Shown here: positions 1,067 through 29,906 of the stretch, piece by piece
How the letters are laid out: the number at the start of each line of letters is the position of its first letter
Position numbering within the stretch: position 1 is the stretch's first letter
Source of the DNA: Vulcanimicrobiota bacterium
GTDB taxonomy: Bacteria; Vulcanimicrobiota; Vulcanimicrobiia; Vulcanimicrobiales; Vulcanimicrobiaceae
Assembly: GCA_019245275.1 (NCBI GenBank)
Contig: JAFARW010000134.1
Span: 1-35,209, forward strand
Direction: 5' to 3'
DNA: 35,209 bases
Notes under the pieces: model-generated
Seen by the model: only the letters and a program-made list of their open reading frames with translations
Database searches by the model: none
Told to the model about the DNA's origin: nothing
Translations under genes and position numbers: made by a program

Positions 1067-2745
1067 CAGTATTTACGCACCTCGGGTTGCCACTTCGTGA
1101 AGACTACTTTGCGCGAGTAGTCGAGGCGTGGATCGCCGTCGGTCCTCCAAACGAGGGTGTGGACGAGCCATTTTTCGTCGTCGCGCTTCGGATAATCCGT
1201 GCGCGCCTGCGCACCGCGCGATTCCGTTCGCGCCAGTGCTCCGTGGACGACGCATTGCGCAGCCTCGATCAGAAATTCTGTCTCCATTGTCCCGACGAGA
1301 TCCGTATTAAAAGTCTTCGATTTATCCATGACGGTCACGTGTTTGATCGCTTCGCGGACCTCTTTCACGTCATCGCAGGCCTTGCGAAGCTGCGCCTCGT
1401 CGCGGAAGATGAAGGCATTTTCGGACATCGTTGCGTTCAGACGTTTGCGGATTTGCGGAGCGCGCTCGCCCTCTTGTCGGGCTAACATTTCGTCGATCCG
1501 CTCTTGCTCGGCTTTGAGGGTCCGCTCGGAAGGCTTGGCCGCGCCGTTGCTCTTGACGTAATCGACTGCATGCTGCGCGGCCCGCGAACCGTAGACGATC
1601 GTTTCCAGCAAGGAGTTACCGCCCAAACGGTTTGCACCGTGCACCGAGACGCAGGCGGTTTCGCCGGCTGCGTAGACGCCGTCGATGCGCGTCTTCCCCC
1701 AAATGTCGGTCTCAATGCCGCCCATCGTGTAGTGCATTCCGGGCAGGATTGGAATCGGCTCCTTGATCGCATCTTTTCCAGTTGCGTCTAGCGCGAGTTC
1801 GCGAATCTGCGGCAGCCGCTCCAAAATCTTTTCGCGGCCCAAATGTCGCAAGTCGAGCAGCACGCAGCCGTCGATGCCGCGCCCTTGCATGATCTCGGTC
1901 CACTCCGCGCGCGAAACGACGTCGCGTGAGGCCAGTTCTCCCTTTTCCGGCGCGTATTTGAACATAAAGCGGTCACCTTCGGAGTTGAGCAAATACGCGC
2001 CCTCGCCTCGCGCCGCTTCCGAAAGCAGCACGCCGTTTTCTTTGAGCGATGTCGGATGGAACTGCACGAACTCCATGTCCATAATCGGCAAACCGGCGCG
2101 AAATGCAATTCCCAACCCGTCGGCGGTCGACGCGTACCCGTTGGTCGTCTTCGCATACATGCGTCCCGCGCCACCGGTCGCAAAAATCGTGGCGCCGGCG
2201 GTAATGAGCTCCAGCTCGCCGGTGCGCATGTTCAGCGCGACGACGCCGGTCCCGATACCGTGCTCAACGCAGAGCGCCGTGCAAAAATACTCTTCGTAAA
2301 CCTTGACGCCGAAACGCTCCAATTGCTCCCAGAGCGTATGTAAGATGACGAGCCCGGTCACGTCGGCGGAGTAACAGGTGCGGGGCGAGCCGGCGCCACC
2401 AAAGGGCCGCTGCGCCAGCCGTCCATCGGGACGGCGTGAGAAGATGCACCCGCGGTGCTCCAGCCAGATGATCTGCCGTGCCGCATCATCGCACATCGCT
2501 TCGATCGCATCCTGATCCCCGAGGTAATCCGACCCCTTAACGCAATCGAACGCGTGGCTTTCCGGAGTGTCGTCCGCCGCATTTCCGAGCGCCGCATTAA
2601 TGCCACCTTGCGCGGCACCGGAGTGACTGCGCACAGGATGCAGCTTCGAAACGATGGCGACGTCGGCGCCGCGTTCGGCGGCTTCCACCGCTGCGCGCAT
2701 GCCGGCCAAGCCGCCCCCGATGACGACTACATCATGTTTGATCAA
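1066..2745 (-). CDS. sdhA: Succinate dehydrogenase/fumarate reductase flavoprotein subunit (TTG start)
   Basis: N-terminal [17 protein letters not shown] Rossmann motif, [15 protein letters not shown] flavin-attachment motif, and [11 protein letters not shown] and GGNSLLE motifs. Confidence 0.96.
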
Positions 2746-2903
2746 AGGGTGTGCCTTTCAAATCTCTCCAAGGAGCCTTCTCCTTTATACGCTTGCACGC
2801 TGCGCCGCCCCCACTACCTCAGTAGTAGCCGTCCCGCCGCCGCCAAGCATCGCGTCAAACGTGTCGAAAGAGTGCTACCGATGAACCGCTGCCGGGCGCT
2901 CAG

Positions 2904-5900
2904 TTGAATTCATTCGTTCACCTGCACGTCCACAGCGAATACTCGCTGCTCGACGGCGCATGTCGCATCGGCGACCTCTGCCGCCGCATCGCCGAGCAAG
3001 GCGCGCCCGCCGTCGCGCTCACGGACCATGGCGTGATGTTTGGCGCGATGGAGTTTTACTACGCAGCCAGGGAACACGGGCTCAATCCAATCATCGGATG
3101 CGAAGCCTACGTTGCCCCGCGCGGCCGATTCGATCGCTCCGTCCGTGAGGAAGCGCATGTAACGCTCCTTGCAGCGGACCTTGGCGGTTACCGGAATCTC
3201 GTGCGCCTCGTCTCAAAGGCGTCGCTCGAAAGCCATTACTACAAGCCGCGCATCGACCTGGAGCTCCTGGCCGAACATCAGAGCGGCTTGATCGCACTCT
3301 CGGGGTGCATGTCGGGAATGGTTGCCGCACCTCTGCTCAAGGGTGACTACGATAAAGCACGGGGCGCCGCGCAGACGTACTCTCAGATTTTCGGCGATCG
3401 GTTCTACTTAGAAATCATGCGGCACGGGATGCCGGAAGAAGATACGATCAACGACGGCCTGATGCGGATCGCGCAGGAACTCAAAGTTCCGCTCGTGGCA
3501 ACGAACGATTCGCATTATCTCGATCGCGCCGATGCGCCGGCACACGATGTCCTGTTGTGCATCGGCACCGGCAAAACGATCTCCGACGAGAATCGGATGA
3601 AGTTTTACTCCGATGAGTTCTATGTCAAGTCGCCCGAAGAGATGCGCGAGGTGTTCGCGGACCTCCCGGAAGCCTGCGACAACTCACTCAGGATCGCCGA
3701 GCGGGTCGACCTCCGACTGCCGGCGCGGCTTTACCGCCTGCCCGAGTTTCCGGTCCCACAGGAGTCGAACGGAGCGGCGACTCCGGAACGCTATCTACGA
3801 CAACTGTGTGAAGAGGGGCTGATAGCGCGCTACGGCGCGACGCGCGCTGCGGAAGATACCGCGCTGCGGGAACGGCTCGAGCACGAGCTTGACGTGATCA
3901 CGACGATGGGCTACGCATCCTACTTCTTGATCGTTTGGGATTTCATCAAGTTTGCGCGCGACAACGACATTCCCGTCGGGCCGGGCCGCGGCTCCGCCGT
4001 AGGCTCCGTCGTCAGTTATGTCCTCGGCATCACCGACTTGGATCCGCTCAAATTCAACTTGCTCTTCGAGCGTTTTCTGAACGCCGATCGCATCTCGATG
4101 CCTGACATCGATACGGATTTCTGCGTCGAGCGCCGCGGCGAAGTGATCCAATACGTCAGCCAAAAGTACGGCGCGGATCGCGTTGCGCAGATCGTTACCT
4201 TTGGGAGGATGAAGACGCGGGCGGCTGTGCGCGACGCGGGGCGAGCTCTGGGCGTGCCTTTGCCGGATGTCGATCGCGTTGCGAAACTGATTCCGGCTGG
4301 TCCGGGCGGTCTTTCAATCAGCGCGGCGCTCGAGCAGATTGCGGACTTGCGCATCATGTATAATCGTCAGCCCGAGGTTCGCAAATTGCTCGACACGGCG
4401 AAAGCGATCGAGGGCCTCGTGCGGCACGCGTCAACACATGCCGCCGGCGTCGTGATCTCGGCCGAGCCGCTGGTAGATCACTCGCCGCTGATCAAGCTCG
4501 CTGAAGGAGAAGTTAACACACAATATTCGATGGGCTGGATCGAGCGCATCGGTTTATTGAAGATGGACTTTCTCGGGCTGCGCAACCTTACCGTAATGAA
4601 GGGCGCGGTCAACGAGATCCGCCGCACAGTCGATCCCGATTTCGACGTGGCGCACATCCCCGACGACGATCGAAAGACGCTCGACATGCTCGAGCGCGGC
4701 GAAACGATGGGCGTCTTTCAGTTGGAATCCGAGGGCATGAAACGCGTCTGCGCCGAGCTGCGGCCCTCCGGACTCGACGACATCATTGCGCTGGTGGCAC
4801 TCTACCGTCCCGGCCCAATGGAATTAATTCCGCGCTTCATCAGCAATAAGTTCGGACGCACTCAAGCCGAGTATCTGCACCCGAAACTAGAGCCGGTCCT
4901 CAGCGACACGTACTCAATCCCAATCTACCAAGAACAGATCATGCAGATCGCACGCGACTTGGCCGGCTTCACGATGGCAGAAGCGGATCAACTCCGCGAC
5001 GTCATCGGCAAGAAGAAGATCGAGAAAGTCCCGGAGTACCGCAAGAAATTCATCGAAGGCGCGATTGCGACATCGGGAATTTCACGCGCACTCGCCGAGC
5101 AGATCTTTGCGTTTGTCGAGCCGTTCGCGGGGTATGGTTTCCCCAAAGGCCATGCCGCTGCGTACGCCTGGATCGCGTACCAGACAGCCTACCTCAAGGC
5201 GAACTTTCCGTTACCCTATTTTGCGGCGCTGATGACGTCGGTGCGCGACCGCACCGAAAAACTTGTAGAGTACATCGACGAAGCGAAGGCGATGGGCATT
5301 CCCGTTCTCGCTCCCGACATCAACGAATCGCTGGTTGATTTCGCGGTGGTCGACAACCAGATTCGCTTCGGGCTCGCGGCAATCAGAGGCGTTGGCGAAA
5401 GTGCGGTCGCGTCGATTTTGCAGGCCCGCGAAGAAGGCGGTCCGTTCACCGATCTCTTCGATGTCGCAAAACGTGTCGACACGCGCGCCGTCAATCGCCG
5501 CGTCTTCGAATCGCTCGTGAAAGCCGGCGCACTGGATGCCCTCCCCGGTAATCGCGCCGCACTCCTTGATTCGATCGACATCGCCCTCGAACTCGGTGCG
5601 AGTGCATCGCGCGATGCGCAGCGCGGCCAAGCATCACTCTTCGGCGATCGAGGGCATGACGTCAGCGGCTTGGTTCCGCGACTGCGTCCTAGCCCACCGC
5701 CGACGACTCTCGAGATGCTCACGTGGGAGAAGGAGACGCTCGGCGTGTTCATCTCCGGCCACCCGCTAGCCGACGTTGCGGATGCGTTGGCGCAAACGCG
5801 TGCAATCCCGGTCAAAGAAGTGCGTAACCGTACGGACGATGAGCTCGTGACGATTGCCGGCATGGTGATGAATGTGCGCCGCACGCTGACGAAGGCACAG

Positions 5901-6347
5901 CAGCAAATCTTGATCGCGACGGTTGAAGACCTGAGCGGCAGCATTGAAGTCGTCGTCTTTTCAAAGCTTTACCCGGTTGTTCAAGGTCTGTTCGTTCCGG
6001 ATAGCATCCTCGTCATTCGCGGTCGGGTGCGCCTACGGGAACGGGCGGGCGCAACGCCGGGTGCTGAACCGCTCGTCGAATATTCGGTTACTGCGAATGA
6101 AGTCTCGGCGTTTGTGCGCCCGGCGCAGAACCGCGAACCATCCGGCTGGCATGTCGTTGCGGAGACTCGCGATCAGATCGATCGACTAGCGCATCTCGCC
6201 GACGAGTGGCCGGGTACCGTGCCGGTTGTCATCCATGCAGGCACAGCATCGCAACAGATGGCCCGTTCGGTCTCGTCCAGCCACCTCGTCAAGCGGGAGC
6301 TCGAGCGAATTTTCGGCGTAGCGAACGTGCGTGAATCCGCGCCCTAA
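2904..6347 (+). CDS. dnaE: DNA polymerase III subunit alpha (TTG start)
   Basis: PHP domain start FVHLHVHSEYSLLDGACRI, VGPGRGSAVGSVVSYVLGITDLDPL, PDIDTDFC, ALYRPGPMELIP, GYGFPKGHAAAYA; C-terminal OB fold. Confidence 0.98.
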   Translation: MNSFVHLHVHSEYSLLDGACRIGDLCRRIAEQGAPAVALTDHGVMFGAMEFYYAAREHGLNPIIGCEAYVAPRGRFDRSVREEAHVTLLAADLGGYRNLVRLVSKASLESHYYKPRIDLELLAEHQSGLIALSGCMSGMVAAPLLKGDYDKARGAAQTYSQIFGDRFYLEIMRHGMPEEDTINDGLMRIAQELKVPLVATNDSHYLDRADAPAHDVLLCIGTGKTISDENRMKFYSDEFYVKSPEEMREVFADLPEACDNSLRIAERVDLRLPARLYRLPEFPVPQESNGAATPERYLRQLCEEGLIARYGATRAAEDTALRERLEHELDVITTMGYASYFLIVWDFIKFARDNDIPVGPGRGSAVGSVVSYVLGITDLDPLKFNLLFERFLNADRISMPDIDTDFCVERRGEVIQYVSQKYGADRVAQIVTFGRMKTRAAVRDAGRALGVPLPDVDRVAKLIPAGPGGLSISAALEQIADLRIMYNRQPEVRKLLDTAKAIEGLVRHASTHAAGVVISAEPLVDHSPLIKLAEGEVNTQYSMGWIERIGLLKMDFLGLRNLTVMKGAVNEIRRTVDPDFDVAHIPDDDRKTLDMLERGETMGVFQLESEGMKRVCAELRPSGLDDIIALVALYRPGPMELIPRFISNKFGRTQAEYLHPKLEPVLSDTYSIPIYQEQIMQIARDLAGFTMAEADQLRDVIGKKKIEKVPEYRKKFIEGAIATSGISRALAEQIFAFVEPFAGYGFPKGHAAAYAWIAYQTAYLKANFPLPYFAALMTSVRDRTEKLVEYIDEAKAMGIPVLAPDINESLVDFAVVDNQIRFGLAAIRGVGESAVASILQAREEGGPFTDLFDVAKRVDTRAVNRRVFESLVKAGALDALPGNRAALLDSIDIALELGASASRDAQRGQASLFGDRGHDVSGLVPRLRPSPPPTTLEMLTWEKETLGVFISGHPLADVADALAQTRAIPVKEVRNRTDDELVTIAGMVMNVRRTLTKAQQQILIATVEDLSGSIEVVVFSKLYPVVQGLFVPDSILVIRGRVRLRERAGATPGAEPLVEYSVTANEVSAFVRPAQNREPSGWHVVAETRDQIDRLAHLADEWPGTVPVVIHAGTASQQMARSVSSSHLVKRELERIFGVANVRESAP

Positions 6348-7143
6348 ACCGAAGTTATTGGCGCTCGATCTCGACGGAACGTTGATTGGGCGAGATTTGC
6401 AGATTCGCCCGCGTGTTCTCCAAGCGGTTGCTGCGGCCCGATCGGCGGGGATAACCGGCTGTATCGTAACGGGCCGCATGTTCCAAGCGACGCTTCCGTT
6501 TGCGCGCCAGATCGAATTCGATCAGCCGATCATCTGCTATCAAGGCGCGGCAATCGTCGATCCGAGCTCAGATGAAGTCTTACAGCATGTCGGCGTCGAG
6601 AGTCCGCTGGTCCTCGAAATCTCCAAGCGGGTGCTCGAGGACGGGATGCATCTCCAACTCTACGCGAACGATCAATTCTACGTGGAAGCGGAGAACGAAT
6701 TCTCCGAACTCTACGCGCGCCTTTCGGGCGTTCGGCCTGTTCGCGTGGACTCGCTCTTGGAAGAATTTCGCTTCCGCGACGCAACTAAAATCGTCGTAAT
6801 CGATCGACCCGAGCGCGCACAAGCGTATGCTGAGACGCTGCGCTCGCTTTTCGGCGATCGCGCATATATCACGCGCAGCTTCCCTGAATTTATCGAGATT
6901 CTGAACCAGAATGTCGACAAGGGCCAAGCGCTGCGCTTCGTCGCGACGCGCGCCGGCATCGATCGGGAGGCCGTGGTTGCCATCGGCGACTCGTGGAATG
7001 ACGTGCCGCTGCTGCGTGCTGCCGGATTTGGAATTGCGATGTCCTCGTCGCCTCCCGAGCTGCTCGAAGTCGCGGATGCGATCGTTCCGGATGTGCTGCA
7101 CGATGGTGTGGCTGAGGCGATCGACCGCTTCGTCATCGCATGA
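6331..7143 (+). CDS. Cof-type HAD-superfamily hydrolase
   Basis: LALDLDGTLIG (motif I), IVTGRMF, and VVAIGDSWNDVPLLRAAGFGIAM (motif IV); overlaps the dnaE 3' end. Confidence 0.92.
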   Translation: MNPRPKPKLLALDLDGTLIGRDLQIRPRVLQAVAAARSAGITGCIVTGRMFQATLPFARQIEFDQPIICYQGAAIVDPSSDEVLQHVGVESPLVLEISKRVLEDGMHLQLYANDQFYVEAENEFSELYARLSGVRPVRVDSLLEEFRFRDATKIVVIDRPERAQAYAETLRSLFGDRAYITRSFPEFIEILNQNVDKGQALRFVATRAGIDREAVVAIGDSWNDVPLLRAAGFGIAMSSSPPELLEVADAIVPDVLHDGVAEAIDRFVIA

Positions 7144-7877
7144 CCGCACGTCGTACGCGCAAAGGTGCGGTCGCCCGCATTCGCCCGTTCTCGATCCTCA
7201 TCGTCCTCCTCGTCGCAGGCGCGGCGATCGGTGCATACTACGCAGCCCAGTGGCCGGGCTTTCATCCGCGGCACATCGCCGTGGTCGGCGCGTCGGTCGT
7301 TCCCAAGGCCGAGGTGCTGCAGCGCGCGGCGCTCGATCGGAGTCGAAACATCTGGCTCCAGAACACCGGCGCGGCGGCGCAACGCGTTGCCCAAATCCCG
7401 TACGTTCGGAGCGTGAAGATACGACGCCGTTTGCCCGCCGACGTGACGATCGCAATTCAGGAACGCAAACCGTTTGCGATCGTTAGTGATGGATCCGCGC
7501 GCGTTCTGGTCGATGACCAACTCCACGTCCTGGACTCCAACCCCGGAGCGACCAATCTTCCCCTAATGCACTCGCAGATCGGCGACGCGTCTGTCGGGAA
7601 GAAGCTTGCATCGCAACAACTTGCGCAGCTCGCGCGCGATTGCCAAACCCTGGTGCATGCGTCCGTGCCGGTGGCGTATTTAAATCTGGATCGCTTGGGC
7701 AATCTCAACGCGCGTCTGACTTCCGGAGTTCTGGTTGAATTTGGCGACGACGCCGATATCGCGTCCAAAGCCCGCCTCGTCAACCCGGTGCTCGCGCAAG
7801 TACCGCAAGGCGGACGCAAAATTCGCGCGCTCGACCTGCGAGCGGCGAAGACGCCGGTTCTTGTTTTCACTCACTGA
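7140..7877 (+). CDS. ftsQ: Cell division protein FtsQ/DivIB (POTRA domain)
   Basis: Single N-terminal TM followed by POTRA-like segment (HPRHIAVVGASVVPKAEVLQRAAL...NIWLQNT...IPYVRSVKIRRRLPADVTIAIQERKPFAI); ATGA overlap with the upstream gene; immediately precedes ftsA. Confidence 0.88.
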   Translation: MTARRTRKGAVARIRPFSILIVLLVAGAAIGAYYAAQWPGFHPRHIAVVGASVVPKAEVLQRAALDRSRNIWLQNTGAAAQRVAQIPYVRSVKIRRRLPADVTIAIQERKPFAIVSDGSARVLVDDQLHVLDSNPGATNLPLMHSQIGDASVGKKLASQQLAQLARDCQTLVHASVPVAYLNLDRLGNLNARLTSGVLVEFGDDADIASKARLVNPVLAQVPQGGRKIRALDLRAAKTPVLVFTH

Positions 7878-7975
7878 ACAAATTGCACAGGCGCTCCACA
7901 TTCCGCTCACAGCCTTATCCTCAAGGAACGGGCTCCTGCGGCCGACAAAGGGCCGCCGATGGAGCGCTCTTGCGC

Positions 7976-7981
7976 TATAAT
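7976..7981 (+). promoter_or_regulatory. Candidate -10 hexamer TATAAT upstream of ftsA
   Basis: Perfect TATAAT in TTGCGCTATAATTTG, 51 nt upstream of the ftsA ATG; no good -35 match, so weak. Confidence 0.4.
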
Positions 7982-8032
7982 TTGTAGGGGAGCATCGGAC
8001 GTTACACAAGATATGGGATCGCGGGCTCGCCT

Positions 8033-9253
8033 ATGAGGCATGACACGGTAGCCGGCCTAGACATCGGCACGACGAAGACGTGCGCGGTCGTCGCAGCCGA
8101 GGGACCGAGCGGACTCGAGATCGTGGGCGTCGGCGAAGCGCCGTCCCTCGGCATGCGCAAAGGCGTTGTGACCGATCTCGAAGAGACGATCAAATCGATC
8201 GAAGCAGCAACTGAAAAGGCCGAACGAATGGCCGGCGTCCACATCTCAGACGTCTACGTTGCGATCACCGGCGAGCACATTCGAAGTACGAACAATCGCG
8301 GCGTCGTTGCCGTCACCGGCCCGGATCGCGAAGTCGTACCGCAGGACGTTCGCCGCGTCGTCGACGCATCGAAGATCATCAACATCTCAGCGGATCGCCA
8401 AATCATTCACGCGCTGCCGCGTCAGTTCACCGTGGACGGTCAAGACGGCGTGGAAGATCCCGTCGGCATGGCGGGCGGCCGGCTCGAAGTCGACACGCAT
8501 ATCATCACGGGCGGTACGTCCTTCATCACGAACGTTCTGAAGTGTGTCCACCGCGCCGGGCTCGAAGCGGCGGGACTCGTCGTCGAGCCGCTCGCTTCAT
8601 CGGCTGCCACCCTCTTAGATGAAGAGAAGCAGGTCGGCGTCGTGCTGCTCGACATTGGCGGCGGCACGACCGACATCGCCGTTTACAGCGGCGGCGGTGC
8701 GATTTACACTTCGACGATTCCGGTCGGCGGCAACATCCTCACGAACGACATCGCGCTCGGCCTCAAGACGACGACGGCGCAGGCCGAGCAGATCAAACGC
8801 ACCTACGGCGCCGGAACGATCGATGGTGAGTCCGCGCACATCTTCAGCGCGCAAACGCTCGATGGTCGCAGCGAACGCGACGTTTCAACAACGCAACTGC
8901 GGCAAATCGTCGTACCGCGCGTTCAAGAGACTTTCCGGATGGCCAAGACCAAGATCATCGACAATGTGCCACGCGATTTAATCCTGGGTGAGCTCGTGCT
9001 AACGGGCGGCGGCGCGCATCTGCGTGGCATTGAAGCGCTTGCCGAAGAAGCGTTCGGCCTTCCGGTGCGCGTCGGTATGCCGAAGACCATCGGCGGATTG
9101 ACTGAAGCGCTCGCGCAACCGGAGTACGCGACGGCGATCGGCTTGATCTTATTCGGACCAAACGAAGGCGGCGCGCTCAACGGGCATTATAGCCGCCGCG
9201 GAACGACGGTCTTCCGTAAACTCGGCCGCTGGTTTAGCGATCTTTGGAATTAG
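8033..9253 (+). CDS. ftsA: Cell division protein FtsA
   Basis: VAGLDIGTTKTCAVVA, GEHIRSTNNRGVVAV, GVVLLDIGGGTTDIAVYSGG, LTGGGAHLRGI actin-fold motifs; upstream of ftsZ. Confidence 0.97.
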   Translation: MRHDTVAGLDIGTTKTCAVVAAEGPSGLEIVGVGEAPSLGMRKGVVTDLEETIKSIEAATEKAERMAGVHISDVYVAITGEHIRSTNNRGVVAVTGPDREVVPQDVRRVVDASKIINISADRQIIHALPRQFTVDGQDGVEDPVGMAGGRLEVDTHIITGGTSFITNVLKCVHRAGLEAAGLVVEPLASSAATLLDEEKQVGVVLLDIGGGTTDIAVYSGGGAIYTSTIPVGGNILTNDIALGLKTTTAQAEQIKRTYGAGTIDGESAHIFSAQTLDGRSERDVSTTQLRQIVVPRVQETFRMAKTKIIDNVPRDLILGELVLTGGGAHLRGIEALAEEAFGLPVRVGMPKTIGGLTEALAQPEYATAIGLILFGPNEGGALNGHYSRRGTTVFRKLGRWFSDLWN

Positions 9254-9301
9254 TCTTTATTGTACGAACAACCGGATCTAAATAAGGAGGCTCCCGAAGC
9301 G

Positions 9302-10372
<1,071 letters not shown>

Positions 10373-10446
10373 CGCGTATTGTGCATAAGTAAAAGAATTC
10401 TGCGCTTGCGCTAACTCCTCGGAGCGTGGGCTTGCGATAATGCAAC

Positions 10447-11166
10447 ATGATGCATGGCGCAAGCGCGGCAACGGCATTAAGAGCGTGGCTCAAGCAACGA
10501 ACCCCCGAGAATCGTAGCCGTATAGTTCATGCGCATGCATACTTGTGCATGCGCGCGGCGCGGAAGTTCGTGCGGCCCGGCTTGGAGCGCTGCGACTTAG
10601 AGCAAGTCGCCGCAATCGGTCTTCTGAAAGCATGCGATCGTTACGAGCCGGCGGCTGGAACCCCGTTCGAGGCCTACGCATGGCTCTTTGTGATCGGCGA
10701 ATTGATGCACTACGTGCGCGACTGGGAGCGACCGATTCGCCCGCCGCGCAAGCTCCGCTCCCTGGAACTAAAGCTCAGGCGCGCAAGTGAAGAACTCGTC
10801 TGCACGTTTGGGCGAAAACCGACGGATGCCGAACTGGCACAACATCTCGGAATCACGCTCGGCGAACTCGCCGGCGTATTGGAATGCCGCGCGCGCTCGA
10901 CCGCATCGTCGTTGGAATCGCTCGCACCGGCATCGCGCCGCGCCATCGCCAACGATTCCGCTCTCGAGACGACTTTAGACCGTCTCGTGATCAAAGATGC
11001 GTGCAGTGTGCTAACGGAAGCGGAGCGCGCAGTCTTATGGGGCGTCTATTCCGGCGGCTTCAGTCAACTGGAGATCGCAAGGCGCCTAGGTTACTCGCCG
11101 CGGCACGTGTCACGCATGCATCGTGCGGCGTTAGGGAAGATCGCTCCGTTGTGCGCCGTGCACTGA
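10447..11166 (+). CDS. RNA polymerase sigma-70 family factor, SigB/F/G-like architecture (regions 2, 3, 4)
   Basis: Region 2 YLCMRAARKFVRPGLERCDLEQVAAIGLLKACDRYEPAAGTPFEAYAWLFVIGELMHYVRDW; region 3 GRKPTDAELAQHLGITLGEL; region 4 LTEAERAVLWGVYSGGFSQLEIARRLGYSPRHVSRMHRAAL. Confidence 0.92.
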   Translation: MMHGASAATALRAWLKQRTPENRSRIVHAHAYLCMRAARKFVRPGLERCDLEQVAAIGLLKACDRYEPAAGTPFEAYAWLFVIGELMHYVRDWERPIRPPRKLRSLELKLRRASEELVCTFGRKPTDAELAQHLGITLGELAGVLECRARSTASSLESLAPASRRAIANDSALETTLDRLVIKDACSVLTEAERAVLWGVYSGGFSQLEIARRLGYSPRHVSRMHRAALGKIAPLCAVH

Positions 11167-11951
11167 CTCTGCCGATTGGGCTCGACGTCGGAGCAACGCG
11201 CATCAGATTGGCAGTCGCTCGGGTACGCAACGGAACGGCGCGCGTCGAGGCCATCGTGGGCCGCGATCGTCGCGACGACGTTTCGCCTGCCGCGTTGGTT
11301 CGAGAAGCGTGGGCGGAGCTCGACGTTCCCGAGCGGCGTTGTGTTCTGGCGCTCGGTGCTCCGGAAGCCGAACTCCGGCCCGCAACTTTACGGCCGCATC
11401 GCATGGTTGGAAGCGCGCAACGCGCCGCGCTTGAAGCGCGCCTCGAGGCGCTCGCAGCCACACCACTGCAAGCGCTGGCGGTCGACCATGAATCCCTCGC
11501 GCTGCAACGAGCGCTGCCGGGCTACCGGATCGTTATCGACGCCGGATACGAACGCACGAGCCTGCATCTGTTCGACGAGTCGCCACCTCGCACGATGTCT
11601 ATTCCGTGCGGCGGTCGCGAGATCGCATTGCAAATTGGGCGAGACCTCGGCATCGACGCGCGAAGTGCGGAATATCGAAAACGCACGCTCGGCGTTAACG
11701 GTGCTGGCGAGGCGTCCTATGAACGATTGCTCGCAGAGATCGTCGCGGCGATGCGGTCGCTGCATACGGGAGCGGACCGGATCGCCTTGGTGGGAAACAA
11801 CGCTCGGCTAGCCGGCATTGCAAAGGATCTCGCTTCGGCCTGCGCATGCACCGTCGACCTACCTGAATCCGAGTTGTTGTGCGGATTGGATGTTGCTGCC
11901 GCCGAGTGGAATCTCGCCGCAGGGCTGAGCATCTGGATGTTGGGCGCTTGA
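11151..11951 (+). CDS. PilM-like actin-fold ATPase (type IV pilus / secretin assembly protein), GTG start
   Basis: LPIGLDVGATRIRLAVARV (PilM/FtsA-like phosphate 1 motif), YRIVIDAGYERTSLHLF (phosphate 2), RIALVGNNARLAGIAKDL; overlaps the sigma gene stop; precedes a secretin. Confidence 0.75.
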   Translation: MRRALTLPIGLDVGATRIRLAVARVRNGTARVEAIVGRDRRDDVSPAALVREAWAELDVPERRCVLALGAPEAELRPATLRPHRMVGSAQRAALEARLEALAATPLQALAVDHESLALQRALPGYRIVIDAGYERTSLHLFDESPPRTMSIPCGGREIALQIGRDLGIDARSAEYRKRTLGVNGAGEASYERLLAEIVAAMRSLHTGADRIALVGNNARLAGIAKDLASACACTVDLPESELLCGLDVAAAEWNLAAGLSIWMLGA

Positions 11952-12454
11952 ATCGACATGATTTTTTGCACTCGCGGAACGGTTGCGAGCGGCGTCGCGT
12001 TCAGTTACGCCGAGCCGTTGCAATTATAGCCGCGACTCTGAGCGTTTTTCTCATCCTTGTTCTCATCGCATTCTTTCACAACGACTTGCAGATGCGGAGC
12101 GCAGCCGTCGACCCGATTTCTCCCATACCGCATCGTGTGACGAAGATCTATCGCACGCAAGCGGCTCGCGTGCAAGCGCATCGGAAATTAAAGAAGGCAG
12201 TCCGACTAGTTACGCCATTCCGCGCTACGCCACGGCCGCCGCGCGTTTTGACGGTGGCATCGCGCCGCAGAGCAGAATATGCAAGGCTGCTTGCCGTTGC
12301 GGTAGGCGGACAGCCGCAGGCGATCGTCGCAGCGGGCGCGCAAACGCGTATCGTCACCATCGGCGACGTTGTCGATGGCCATCGCATCGCGGCGATCGTG
12401 CTTGACGGCCTGCGCTTTGCGGGTGTGCAACAGATGATGCGAATCCGTCGATGA
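11948..12454 (+). CDS. Single-pass membrane protein with C-terminal PilP/GspC-like homology region (putative inner-membrane clamp), TTG start
   Basis: TTGA overlap with upstream stop; N-terminal TM VAIIAATLSVFLILVLIAFF; C-terminal RIVTIGDVVDGHRIAAIVLDGLRFAGVQQ resembles PilP/GspC HR pattern; followed by secretin. Confidence 0.55.
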   Translation: MNRHDFLHSRNGCERRRVQLRRAVAIIAATLSVFLILVLIAFFHNDLQMRSAAVDPISPIPHRVTKIYRTQAARVQAHRKLKKAVRLVTPFRATPRPPRVLTVASRRRAEYARLLAVAVGGQPQAIVAAGAQTRIVTIGDVVDGHRIAAIVLDGLRFAGVQQMMRIRR

Positions 12455-13668
12455 AGCAGCGTGCATTCATCGCGCTCGTTTGCATGCTGTGCGTGGCTGC
12501 TTCGTCAAGCGCCATGCCGATCTCGATCGACATCCGCGACGCGCGTTTAGGCGATGTCATCTTCATGCTCGCAGCCCAGTCGGGAAAGAGCATCATCGCG
12601 GATACATCCGCGCGCCGCGAACGCGTAACGTTACGCGTGCGGAATGCAAGCTTCGATCGAATCCTGAAGCTCCTGGCGGGCACACACAATCTCCGGCTGA
12701 TGCGCGACGGCAACATCTACCTGCTCTCGGCAAACGCACCCACAGCGCACGCAGCATCGGCGACGCCGAACACCATGCGCCCTCACGAACTGCGTCTGCC
12801 GGCCGTCGTGATCCCCGCGAATCCATTTGACTCTGCGAAGCGCACGCCAAGCGTCGCCGATGCCACCGTCGACGTGAGCTCGATCTCGCTGCGGTTCGTC
12901 AAACCGTCGGTGGCGCTCGATGCGGTGCGCGATCTATTGCCCGCGGCAACCTTCATTCCAGATGACACGCATCGTGGCGTGACAGTCGTAGGAAGCGCGA
13001 GCGCAGTGAATATTTCGAGCTACCTGCTGGAGAACGCCGATTCACAGCGGCCGCGCGTCCTAGTCGATGTGCGCGCGATTGACGTTCGAATCGCGGAGCA
13101 GGAAGATACCCTCGCGCAGGAACTCAGCGACGATCCCGTTGCCCAGAGCAAAAACGTGCCGCTGTACGCCTTTCTCAAAAACACGCGATCGCTGGAGGGC
13201 GATCTGCGTTTCTTGGTCGATGTTGGACGGGCGCAGAGCATCGCAAGCCGCCGATTCGTAGCGCCGGCCGGCCGGCACTTCGATTTCCTAATCGGCGGCC
13301 CAAACGGCGCCGACGTTGACATCAAGCCGGCGCCAGCCGATCCAGGAATCGGCATGGAGATCGCTAGCCGATATAATCTGCCGGTGAAAGCCGGCGGCGC
13401 AACCGCGCTGCTGAGCCGCGAAAGGACCTTTTCGTTCCGCGCGCAGCCGAACCAATCGATTATTGTGGGCGGCTTTTTCAAAGAGGTCGATCCGCAGACG
13501 ATCGCCGGCGCGCCGCGCTTGGAGCAACTTCCGGCCCTAGGCCCGATCTTTTTGAAACGCAGACGCTCCCATATAAAGGATGAAATCTGCGTCGTGATCA
13601 CGCCGCGGCTGGTCGGGCAAGGGCCGGGAAGGGCTCGTCAGCACGAAAGGGGCGCGCGCTCGGCGTAA
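12451..13668 (+). CDS. Short secretin (STN domain + type II/III secretion system secretin domain)
   Basis: Signal peptide; STN-like IDIRDARLGDVIFMLAAQSGKSIIADTSARRERVTLRVRNASFDRILKLLAGTHNLRLMRDGNIYLLS; C-terminal LPALGPIFLKRRRSHIKDEICVVITPRLV secretin signature. Confidence 0.82.
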   Translation: MKQRAFIALVCMLCVAASSSAMPISIDIRDARLGDVIFMLAAQSGKSIIADTSARRERVTLRVRNASFDRILKLLAGTHNLRLMRDGNIYLLSANAPTAHAASATPNTMRPHELRLPAVVIPANPFDSAKRTPSVADATVDVSSISLRFVKPSVALDAVRDLLPAATFIPDDTHRGVTVVGSASAVNISSYLLENADSQRPRVLVDVRAIDVRIAEQEDTLAQELSDDPVAQSKNVPLYAFLKNTRSLEGDLRFLVDVGRAQSIASRRFVAPAGRHFDFLIGGPNGADVDIKPAPADPGIGMEIASRYNLPVKAGGATALLSRERTFSFRAQPNQSIIVGGFFKEVDPQTIAGAPRLEQLPALGPIFLKRRRSHIKDEICVVITPRLVGQGPGRARQHERGARSA

Positions 13669-16475: not shown

Positions 16476-16483
16476 AGGTGGGT

Positions 16484-17194
16484 ATGTTTGGGTTTCTTCT
16501 TCCCGTAGCCATTGTCGCGTCAGCCATCGCGATCCCGAATCCGCAGCCGACGCTTCCGCCGTTGATCGGCAACGTCTACTCACGTGGACACTGCAGCGAC
16601 GGTCAGCGCACGCTGCTACGCGTTTTGCCGATGCTGATCACCAATGACAATACGATCGGGCGCGCCGTCGTCGGACTGGCGAGGGTCGATTCAACAAATG
16701 AGGCCACAACGCAGTTTGCCGTCAACCACACGCGACAGATGAGCAACCAAATTTTCAAAAACCTAGAAGGGGCCAAGAAGGAGCTCACGACGCTTCATGC
16801 GTTGGCAGCCGCAAGTTCAAACCCGGAGCAAGCTCGGCATTTTTCAGATGTTGCCGATTCGCTCGATACGGTTGTGGCGGAACAAAATGCCGTCGCGGAT
16901 CAGCTGAACGGTTACGCGGATACTGCAGATATGAGCCTTCTCTACACCGGCAGTGAGACTGAGCGGCAGATGGAAGCCTCAACAGGGCCTGGCGAAAACA
17001 CTTATTTGGGATCTCTCCAAGCAACGCAAAAGGCGCAGCACCCCTCGATGGCCCTGAGCGACATCGGCGCGTTGACGACGAACGTCTTCAAAGACGTTCA
17101 GACGCTGCGCGGGCAACTTGCCAATACCGAGGCACAAACGACGCAGCAGGTTCGCGAAGTCGTGAAAACCTGCGCGCCCAAACGCAAACCGTAA
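16484..17194 (+). CDS. Secreted or membrane-anchored helical hypothetical protein
   Basis: Intact ORF with N-terminal hydrophobic segment MFGFLLPVAIVASAIAIPNPQPTLP followed by Q/A/T-rich predicted helices; no family recognised. Confidence 0.75.
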   Translation: MFGFLLPVAIVASAIAIPNPQPTLPPLIGNVYSRGHCSDGQRTLLRVLPMLITNDNTIGRAVVGLARVDSTNEATTQFAVNHTRQMSNQIFKNLEGAKKELTTLHALAAASSNPEQARHFSDVADSLDTVVAEQNAVADQLNGYADTADMSLLYTGSETERQMEASTGPGENTYLGSLQATQKAQHPSMALSDIGALTTNVFKDVQTLRGQLANTEAQTTQQVREVVKTCAPKRKP

Positions 17195-28135: not shown

Positions 28136-29080
28136 TTGACCTCAAAGCTGCATGTCACGAACGGCGACTCGGTCGTGTACACTTGGCGCAAAGGCGGCCT
28201 CATCGGCACGCAACTTCCGTGGCGCGACGCGCTGCATGACGGCCCGGTTCCGGCAGGTTTAGCGCTTCCCGAGCTGAGCGCGCTGCGCGCGCAGTATCTG
28301 GGCGTCGCCGGCTACGGCAACCCGATCAGACTCGGCCACGATTTTCAAAAACGCGATGCGACGATCGCGCGCTGCATGGAGTTCGACGAAGTCGTGCTCT
28401 GGTTCGAGCACGATCTTTACGACCAGCTGCAGTTGTTGCAGATCCTCGACTACCTCGCTGGTCAATCCTTGCCGTTGGGAAGCCTGCAATTGATCCAGAG
28501 CGATGATTTCTTGGGATTGCTCGCCGCACCCGAACTGCTAGCGCTCCAAAACAGTCGGCGCCCGGTGCTCCAGCAAACGTTGCGCGGGGCATCGGAGATG
28601 TGGGCGGCTTACCGGGCGCCGACGCCTGAGCGACTCTTTGAAATCCACGGGGCCGTTCCGGCACAACTTCGTCACATGACGAGCGCGCTGCGGAGGCTTT
28701 TCGAGGAGTATCCGTCGGTGCGAACGGGCACATCGCGCACGCAACGGCACATCCTCGAAGCGGTTGCAGAAGGCGCGCATGCCAAAGAGGACATTTTTCG
28801 GCTCGCGCAACTGCGCGAAGAGGCTGCGTTTTTGGGCGATGCGCCGTTTTACAAACGCTTCGAAGAGCTCTGCGACGCATCGGCGCCGTTACTGCAGGCA
28901 ATACAAAACGGATACCGACTTACGCCGCTCGGGCGCCGCGTGCTTGCGGGCGCTGAGGATTGGCTTGCGTTGCGCGGGAGCGAGCGTTGGATCGGCGGCG
29001 TGCATCTGAGCGGCGCCGACGTCTGGCGGTGGGATGAGGACGCAGCGATGTTCGCCGCGCCCTCAAATTTGGAAACCTAG
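28136..29080 (+). CDS. DUF1835-domain-like protein (TTG start)
   Basis: LHVTNGDSVVYTWRKGGLIGTQLPWRDALHDGPVPAGL and FDEVVLWFEHDLYDQLQLLQILDYL match the DUF1835 pattern as remembered. Confidence 0.75.
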   Translation: MTSKLHVTNGDSVVYTWRKGGLIGTQLPWRDALHDGPVPAGLALPELSALRAQYLGVAGYGNPIRLGHDFQKRDATIARCMEFDEVVLWFEHDLYDQLQLLQILDYLAGQSLPLGSLQLIQSDDFLGLLAAPELLALQNSRRPVLQQTLRGASEMWAAYRAPTPERLFEIHGAVPAQLRHMTSALRRLFEEYPSVRTGTSRTQRHILEAVAEGAHAKEDIFRLAQLREEAAFLGDAPFYKRFEELCDASAPLLQAIQNGYRLTPLGRRVLAGAEDWLALRGSERWIGGVHLSGADVWRWDEDAAMFAAPSNLET

Positions 29081-29418
29081 CTTTTCTTTCGGCTTCGTTT
29101 TCGTTTCGGAACTTTGCCCCCGGAGCGGCGTGCCTCGGAAAGCCCGATCGCGATCGCCTGTTTGCGGCTCGTTACCTTCTTGCCGGAGCGACCGGAACGG
29201 AGTTCGCCGCGCTTCATCTCGTGCATGCTGCGTTTGACTTTGCGGGAAGCCTTCGGACCGTATTTCCGTTTTTTGCGCCCGCCCTTGGACTTGCGCGAGC
29301 TTTTTCGCGACGATTTCTTACGTCCGCTCGATTTTCGCCGCGAGGAACTGCTGCGGCTGCTCGAGCTGCGTTTCCGGCGGCTCGAGGATTTCTTGCGGCT
29401 GGATTTTTTTCTCGGCAT
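29077..29418 (-). CDS. Lys/Arg/Ser-rich basic protein with C-terminal DUF6496-like segment
   Basis: MPRKKSSRKKSSSRRKRSSSSRSSSSRRKSSGRKKSSRKSSRKSKGGRKKRKYGPKASRKVKRSMHEMKRGELRSGRSGKKVTSRKQAIAIGLSEARRSGGKVPKRKRSRKKS; start ATG 29418. Confidence 0.8.
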   Translation of the reverse strand: MPRKKSSRKKSSSRRKRSSSSRSSSSRRKSSGRKKSSRKSSRKSKGGRKKRKYGPKASRKVKRSMHEMKRGELRSGRSGKKVTSRKQAIAIGLSEARRSGGKVPKRKRSRKKS

Positions 29419-29528
29419 AGTCTTTCTTCGCTTTCCTCCTGACGAGTAACGAATCGTGGAGCCTACCGTTGTACATACCCATATCCGCGAGAGGACCGTC
29501 GCTAACGGGATGCAGAAGCGACTTCTCC

Positions 29529-29906
29529 ATGGCTTCCGCTCAGCTAGCGATCGACGTCGTCGGCGAACCGCGACCCGAAGCGAAAGTTCTGGCGCTCCGC
29601 GGAACACTGGATATGGCAACGTCGCCGTCTTTGCGCTCCGCATTGCTCGAGGCCACCGAAGCTGGTAAAGAAGAGATCGTCATCGACTTGACGCGCGTCG
29701 AGTACATCGACTCAACCGGATTGGGTTCATTGATCGGCGCGCAGCGCAGAGCGCAGGAACGCAATGGCTGCCTGCGGCTCGTCGTTAAAGAGGGACCGCT
29801 CTCGCGGCTTTTCAACATCACGGGCCTGGTGCGCGTCTTCGGAATCTATCCCAGCGTTGATGATGCGCTCGGCGATACGCGCCGCGTCGCCGCGGCACAA
29901 GCCTAA
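29529..29906 (+). CDS. STAS-domain anti-sigma factor antagonist (SpoIIAA/RsbV-like)
   Basis: LALRGTLDMATSPSLRSALLEATEAGKEEIVIDLTRVEYIDSTGLGSLIGAQRRAQERNGCLRLV with phosphoacceptor Ser in DSTGLG. Confidence 0.93.
   Translation: MASAQLAIDVVGEPRPEAKVLALRGTLDMATSPSLRSALLEATEAGKEEIVIDLTRVEYIDSTGLGSLIGAQRRAQERNGCLRLVVKEGPLSRLFNITGLVRVFGIYPSVDDALGDTRRVAAAQA

What the first reader, a model, noticed from the sequence alone, without database searches (positions are those of the whole stretch)
11151..13668. Minimal PilM / PilP-GspC-like / short-secretin cassette directly behind ftsAZ and a sigma factor
Seen: overlapping or 4-nt-coupled ORFs (GTG 11151, TTGA 11948, ATGA 12451) encode a 266-aa PilM-like actin fold, a 168-aa single-TM protein with GDVVDGHRIAAIVLDGLRF near its C-terminus, and a 405-aa secretin. 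No PilB/PilC/pilin/PilN/PilO in the window. Known: PilM and FtsA are homologous actin-fold proteins, and PilM-N-O-P-Q is the type IV pilus envelope-spanning complex. Inference: either a split type IV pilus locus or a stripped-down secretin conduit co-expressed with the division machinery; a secretin also implies an outer membrane.
Basis: partly seen in the sequence, partly recalled or inferred. Interest (0 to 1): 0.7.

Follow-up and report, generated by a model that had tools for sequence, protein, structure and literature searches.

The report
Stripped pilus operon with PilN–PilP hybrid
In an uncultured Eremiobacterota bacterium, the gene set that normally builds gripping pili has shrunk to three tightly coupled genes, one of them an apparent merger of two pilus proteins that could by itself bridge the inside of the cell to a strongly altered outer-membrane ring protein, although the pilus motor appears to be gone.

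Summary
The three ORFs are real, at the stated coordinates, intact and overlap-coupled. They are not a novel cassette placed behind ftsAZ. In this Eremiobacterota family a complete type IV pilus operon normally sits exactly here (ftsZ-pilB-pilT-pilC-sigma-ccdA/TPR-pilD-pilMNOPQ-aroCKB-priA); in the window about 8 kb of it is missing. No PilB/T, PilC, PilD, PilN, ComEC or second secretin was found in the 77.9%-complete genome, and the 96%-complete sister genome also lacks PilB/T, PilD, PilN, ComEC and a secretin. New here: the 168-aa protein is best read as a fusion of the PilN cytoplasmic tail plus membrane helix with the PilP/GspC HR domain. PilM keeps its conserved core but has lost most of subdomain 1C. 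PilQ keeps N0, one N1 and the C-terminal secretin signature but is eroded in the secretin core. Coding signals and zero stops argue that all three stayed under selection. Most likely: a pilus-less remnant of the PilM-PilN-PilP-PilQ axis, possibly still an envelope tether; the main rival is a decaying relic. No second example was found in 99 family genomes or about 50 named Eremiobacterota pil loci.

The parts
10447..11166 (+). SigB/SigF/SigG-type sigma factor gene, inherited member of the pil operon; overlaps pilM by 16 nt
   Evidence: orthologue lies between pilC and ccdA/pilD in relatives and is kept next to aroC in several pil-less relatives
11151..11951 (+). PilM, 266 aa; actin-like core kept, about 38 aa of subdomain 1C missing after residue 76
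   Evidence: Pfam alone weak
11948..11980 (+). PilN-type cytoplasmic tail (MNRHDFLHSRN) of the hybrid protein; TTG start overlaps the pilM stop
   Evidence: PSSM of 21 family PilN starts: 16.1 bits; best non-PilN of 41,953 start contexts about 11.2 bits; tail-composition shuffle p = 5e-6
11981..12100 (+). single membrane-spanning helix of the hybrid (residues 12-51)
   Evidence: AlphaFold2 helix 12-51; hydrophobic segment visible in the sequence
12101..12280 (+). basic, proline-containing periplasmic linker, predicted disordered
   Evidence: pLDDT about 50-58
12281..12454 (+). PilP/GspC HR beta domain of the hybrid, plus stop codon
   Evidence: independent HMM 45 bits; AlphaFold2 pLDDT about 95; Foldseek best hits GspC HR 3oss and several PilP structures, though E-values are only 0.007-0.4
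12451..13668 (+). PilQ-type secretin, 405 aa, strongly diverged
   Evidence: Pfam Secretin 1.9e-10, C-terminal half only; family alignment A2
12520..12735 (+). PilQ N0/STN domain (residues 24-95)
   Evidence: confident AlphaFold2 fold; N0 domain 4ar0 among Foldseek matches
12868..13089 (+). PilQ N1-type domain (residues 140-213); the other N domain is largely missing, as in G071, G002 and G019
13090..13389 (+). eroded secretin core; about 20 residues of the family segment TYPIVY..GGQxVQFVDIGVKLRLTPTIG lost after residue 282
13390..13614 (+). conserved C-terminal secretin signature (..LPALGPIF..DEICVVITPRLV)
   Evidence: profile positions 94-168

Best explanation
This is the family's ancestral type IV pilus operon after reductive deletion. 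Three blocks are gone: pilB-pilT-pilC; the ccdA/TPR-pilD block; and most of pilN, all of pilO and the start of pilP, which joined the PilN cytoplasmic tail and membrane helix to the PilP HR domain. The remaining products are a PilM lacking most of subdomain 1C, a one-pass PilN::PilP hybrid, and a PilQ with a reworked secretin core. No pilus can be built with what was found. The most likely working model is a minimal cytoplasm-to-outer-membrane link: PilM at the hybrid's cytoplasmic tail, the hybrid spanning the inner membrane and periplasm, and its HR domain docked on PilQ N0. Shown here: the anatomy, homology, gene losses and coding constraint. Inferred: expression, PilM-tail binding (uncertain because much of 1C is missing), HR-N0 docking, outer-membrane insertion, and any role at the division site.
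For: Full operon at the same site in relatives. Tail match to PilN and HR match to PilP. Published roles: PilM clamps the PilN amino terminus and the PilP HR domain binds PilQ N0 (PMC5285504; PMC3724824); the first eight PilN residues bind PilM (PMC6325625). No PilB/T, PilC, PilD, PilN or ComEC found. Coding constraint: no stops, normal codon bias, PilM conserved-site retention 0.82 and branch length within the family range. Where the operon decayed elsewhere only scars or fragments remain.
Against: PilQ is heavily eroded: it keeps 43% of conserved positions against at least 79% in the others, and its branch is 2.53 against at most 0.57. PilM lacks much of subdomain 1C, which I recall forms one side of the PilN-binding channel. 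Only one genome shows the arrangement and it is 78% complete. Recurrent complete loss of the operon in relatives fits a relic on the way out. A 50-residue PilN N-terminal HMM (rather than the 7-residue PSSM) is only modestly specific: one of 300 shuffles scored higher.
Confidence: 0.58

Rival explanations
1. A non-functional relic: the operon is decaying after loss of pili and the ORFs are still open only because the loss is fairly recent, or because translation through them protects expression of the downstream aroCKB genes.
For: At least seven separate losses of the operon across the family; erosion of PilQ and loss of PilM 1C; in G080 a single large deletion left an in-frame PilB::PilQ scar in front of aroC, so in-frame fusions can arise by chance.
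Against: No stop in 839 codons where composition alone predicts about 24; many indels relative to the family, all frame-preserving; gene-like codon usage; PilM evolves at the family rate. Relatives that lost the genes keep aroCKB without them.
Confidence: 0.3
2. A split type IV pilus locus: the motor, platform, peptidase and pilins lie in the unsampled 22% of the genome.
For: Genome 77.9% complete in 228 contigs. A split arrangement does occur in the sister family f2, where ftsZ is followed by pilO-pilP-pilQ and pilN and pilD lie together elsewhere.
Against: In f1 these genes normally sit in this operon and the site here is contiguous. PilB/T, PilC, PilD, PilN and ComEC all missing by chance is unlikely, and the 96%-complete sister G004 lacks PilB/T, PilD, PilN, ComEC and secretin. 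PilN tail use and loss of PilO are hard to reconcile with a standard machine.
Confidence: 0.07
3. A GspC-GspD-like (type II secretion) conduit rather than a pilus derivative.
For: The hybrid has GspC topology (short tail, one helix, linker, HR domain), and the best fold match is GspC HR.
Against: Location and neighbours are those of the family pil operon; the tail is that of the family PilN; no GspE or GspF homologue was found in the genome.
Confidence: 0.03
4. An assembly or binning artefact.
For: Single MAG, single genome with the arrangement.
Against: Flanking synteny matches the family (ftsQAZ, aroCKB, priA); the junctions are in frame and coupled; divergence is spread through all three genes; FtsZ and AroC place the contig with its family.
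Confidence: 0.02

Closest known systems
PilMNOPQ alignment and secretin subcomplex of type IVa pili
   Same: PilM, PilP HR and PilQ N0/N1/C-terminal domains in the same gene order; the cytoplasm-to-N0 chain of parts is kept
   Different: PilN and PilO periplasmic domains missing, PilN tail fused to PilP, no motor, platform or peptidase found, PilM 1C and PilQ core reduced
PilO-PilP gene fusions (e.g. Pseudomonas putida Q88CU9, cited in PMC3169554)
   Same: fusion of PilP to another alignment-complex protein
   Different: here the partner is the PilN tail and helix, both PilN and PilO globular domains are lost, and no pilus machine was found
GspC of type II secretion systems
   Same: topology: short cytoplasmic tail, one membrane helix, linker, HR domain of the kind that docks on secretin N0
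   Different: origin from pilN/pilP in a pil operon; no other T2SS genes found; no further C-terminal domain after HR
Intact Eremiobacterota pil operon (e.g. G032, G027, G078; Vulcanimicrobium makes type IV pili)
   Same: same locus between ftsZ and aroC, orthologous sigma, PilM, PilP HR and PilQ
   Different: relatives carry pilB, pilT, pilC, ccdA/TPR, pilD, pilN and pilO as well

Membership tests
Type IV pilus machine | Extension ATPase PilB (PF00437) | tested here: not met
   none in own genome, 77.9% complete; none in sister G004
Type IV pilus machine | Platform protein PilC (PF00482) | tested here: not met
   none in own genome
Type IV pilus machine | Prepilin peptidase PilD (PF01478) | tested here: not met
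   none in G000 or G004
Type IV pilus machine | Pilins with class III signal | not tested
   no genome-wide pilin search was made; none recognised in the window
PilMNOPQ alignment complex | Separate PilN and PilO with periplasmic domains | tested here: not met
   no PilN by family profile (best E = 0.07); PilO absent from the window, not searched genome-wide
PilM | Actin-like fold with conserved nucleotide-site residues | tested here: met
   82% of conserved non-gap positions kept; family profile matches 2YCH; the fold itself was not predicted
PilM | Subdomain 1C, side of the PilN-binding channel | tested here: not met
   about 38 residues of 1C missing; assignment of 1C to this block is from memory of the 2YCH work
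PilN | N-terminal cytoplasmic motif at the start codon | tested here: met
   weaker with a longer HMM
PilN | Periplasmic ferredoxin-like domain | tested here: not met
   replaced by a disordered linker and HR domain
PilP/GspC HR domain | Small beta domain of the HR fold | tested here: met
PilP | RDPF motif and long linker before HR | tested here: not met
   family RDPF reads VTPF in the window and the linker is unrelated
Secretin (PilQ) | N0 and N1 domains plus C-terminal secretin signature | tested here: met
Secretin (PilQ) | Complete core barrel/gate region | tested here: inconclusive
   about 20 residues lost, low AlphaFold2 confidence, 43% of conserved sites kept

The most novel reading that the evidence does not exclude
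A dedicated pilus-free envelope machine: an actin-like PilM in the cytoplasm is tied by a single PilN::PilP protein to an altered outer-membrane secretin ring, co-opted for envelope tethering or outer-membrane handling at the division site next to whose genes it is encoded.
Probability: 0.15. Interest if true: 0.75.

Novelty: new variant of a known kind. Interest (0 to 1): 0.5.

Why it matters
If functional, it is a natural minimal version of the PilM-to-PilQ link, with PilN and PilO globular domains dispensed with, and it would ask what a PilM-secretin axis can do without a pilus; machinery of this kind is known to be recruited to division sites in Pseudomonas (PMC5285504). If a relic, it is still a rare intermediate of pilus loss in a family that has lost the operon at least seven times, and a clear example of how deletion can merge PilN and PilP in frame.

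Tried and rejected
A single-protein PilQ scan of genome contigs found nothing; the alignment scan found about 50 Eremiobacterota pil loci, none with this arrangement. 99 family genomes hold no close PilQ relative. The idea of a special ftsAZ-secretin cassette was dropped once the full operon was seen at the same place in relatives. Loss of one PilQ N domain was first taken as erosion but also occurs in G071, G002 and G019 with full operons. PF11104 does not report the window's own PilM, so it cannot exclude a second divergent PilM. Contig ends of G004 and G026 were read to see whether they keep the cassette: both stop within the ftsZ-aroC gap; G004 shows no PilQ end in the 275 bases before aroC. 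dN/dS was not attempted for want of a close relative.

Full report
Observation. The three ORFs exist as described: GTG 11151-11951, TTG 11948-12454 and ATG 12451-13668, joined by 4-nt overlaps, behind ftsQ-ftsA-ftsZ and a sigma gene and in front of aroC-aroK-aroB and priA. The sigma gene is of the SigB/F/G kind and overlaps pilM by 16 nt.

Source. The window's genome G000 is 1.77 Mb in 228 contigs, 77.9% complete. On FtsZ plus AroC it groups with G004 and G026 (supports 85-89 around the group).

The normal state of the locus. In relatives the same stretch between ftsZ and aroC holds pilB, pilT, pilC, sigma, a CcdA/DsbD-type gene, a TPR gene, pilD, pilM, pilN, pilO, pilP and pilQ, about 11 kb (confirmed in most of about 50 named loci). 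In the window the ftsZ-aroC gap is 3.3 kb. Adjacency to ftsAZ is thus inherited. The operon is lost repeatedly in the family: only sigma is left in G035, G074, G082, G066 and G021; nothing in G025 and G020; a frame-shifted PilQ tail in G033; and a PilB::PilQ deletion scar in G080.

Not a split locus as far as can be seen. G000 has one secretin and no PilB/PilT, PilC, PilD, ComEC or PilN by profile. G004, 96% complete, lacks PilB/PilT, PilD, ComEC, PilN and a PilQ match too. A second divergent PilM cannot be excluded, because PF11104 does not list even the window's own PilM.

The hybrid. The 168-aa protein starts M(TTG)-NRHDFLH, directly on the pilM stop, where relatives start PilN with motifs such as MIRFDYLHD or VIQFDFLHD. 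A PSSM from 21 PilN starts gives it 16.1 bits; among 41,953 start-codon contexts in 41 loci only genuine PilN starts score as high, the best other being about 11.2. Shuffling its own tail reaches that score with p = 5e-6, and PilP and PilO starts score below 1. A longer N-terminal HMM is less specific (one of 300 shuffles is higher). The C-terminal 65 residues match an HR profile built from relatives only (45 bits). AlphaFold2 gives a helix at 12-51, a disordered linker, and a beta domain at 112-168 with pLDDT about 95, whose best Foldseek matches are GspC HR and several PilP structures, with modest E-values. PilO-PilP fusions are known (PMC3169554); I found no report of a PilN-PilP one in the library.

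PilM and PilQ. PilM keeps 82% of conserved non-gap positions (others 78-100%) and has an ordinary branch length, but lacks about 38 residues of the block matching 2YCH residues around 90-140, which I take from memory to be subdomain 1C. PilQ keeps N0, one N1 and the C-terminal signature, but only 43% of conserved positions (others at least 79%) and sits on a branch of 2.53 (others at most 0.57); about 20 residues of the most conserved core segment are gone and the core folds with low confidence. Foldseek still finds V. cholerae PilQ first.

Is it still selected? Composition alone predicts 7.1, 5.5 and 11.8 stops in the three genes; none is present. Codon choice is that of neighbouring genes. 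The indels relative to the family all keep frame. These favour protein-level selection for much of the divergence, but cannot date its end. A rival is that open frames are kept for the sake of the downstream aroCKB genes, or that decay is recent; the in-frame PilB::PilQ scar of G080 shows that in-frame fusions can also be accidents.

Mechanism. Published work gives the two contacts that the retained parts correspond to: PilM with the first residues of PilN (PMC6325625; PMC5285504) and the PilP HR domain with PilQ N0 (PMC5285504; PMC3724824). The hybrid carries both ends in one chain, so a PilM-hybrid-PilQ bridge is the simplest working model. The weak points are the missing part of PilM 1C and the reworked PilQ core. 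Division-site localisation is known for this machinery in Pseudomonas (PMC5285504), but nothing here tests it.

Verdict. A reduced and partly fused derivative of the PilMNOPQ system, new as a variant, with an open question between a pilus-free envelope link and a relic.

Noticed in passing
L050 (G037:C87), 6967-12113: In sister family f2 ftsZ is followed directly by pilO-pilP-pilQ and then aroC, while pilN and pilD sit together elsewhere (G037:C74 about 149-152 kb): a truly split pil locus.
   Followed up: partly
L115 (G080:C84), 3566-4717: A 384-aa ORF joins the first ~300 residues of PilB to the last 58 of PilQ, an in-frame scar of one large deletion in front of aroC.
   Followed up: partly
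L113 (G033:C11), 9412-9698: PilQ tail in two different frames, a pseudogene in a genus whose other members have the full operon.
   Followed up: partly
L116, L117, L118, L119, L123: The SigB/F/G-type sigma gene of the pil operon is kept near aroC in genomes that have lost the pil genes there, so it probably has its own role.
   Followed up: partly
L112 (G020:C10), 1573-12036: The pil genes are gone but the ftsZ-aroC gap is still about 10.5 kb, so something else occupies it.
   Followed up: no
window 16478-17194: 238-aa ORF with a likely signal peptide and no Pfam or NCBIfam match.
   Followed up: no
window 29077-29643: Lysine/arginine/serine-rich basic protein with histone-H1-like repeats (KKSSRRKRSSS...).
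   Followed up: no
window 13349-13377: Promoter-like TCGGCA-17-TATAAT inside pilQ upstream of aroC; could be a chance match (3 found, 1.2 expected in the region).
   Followed up: no
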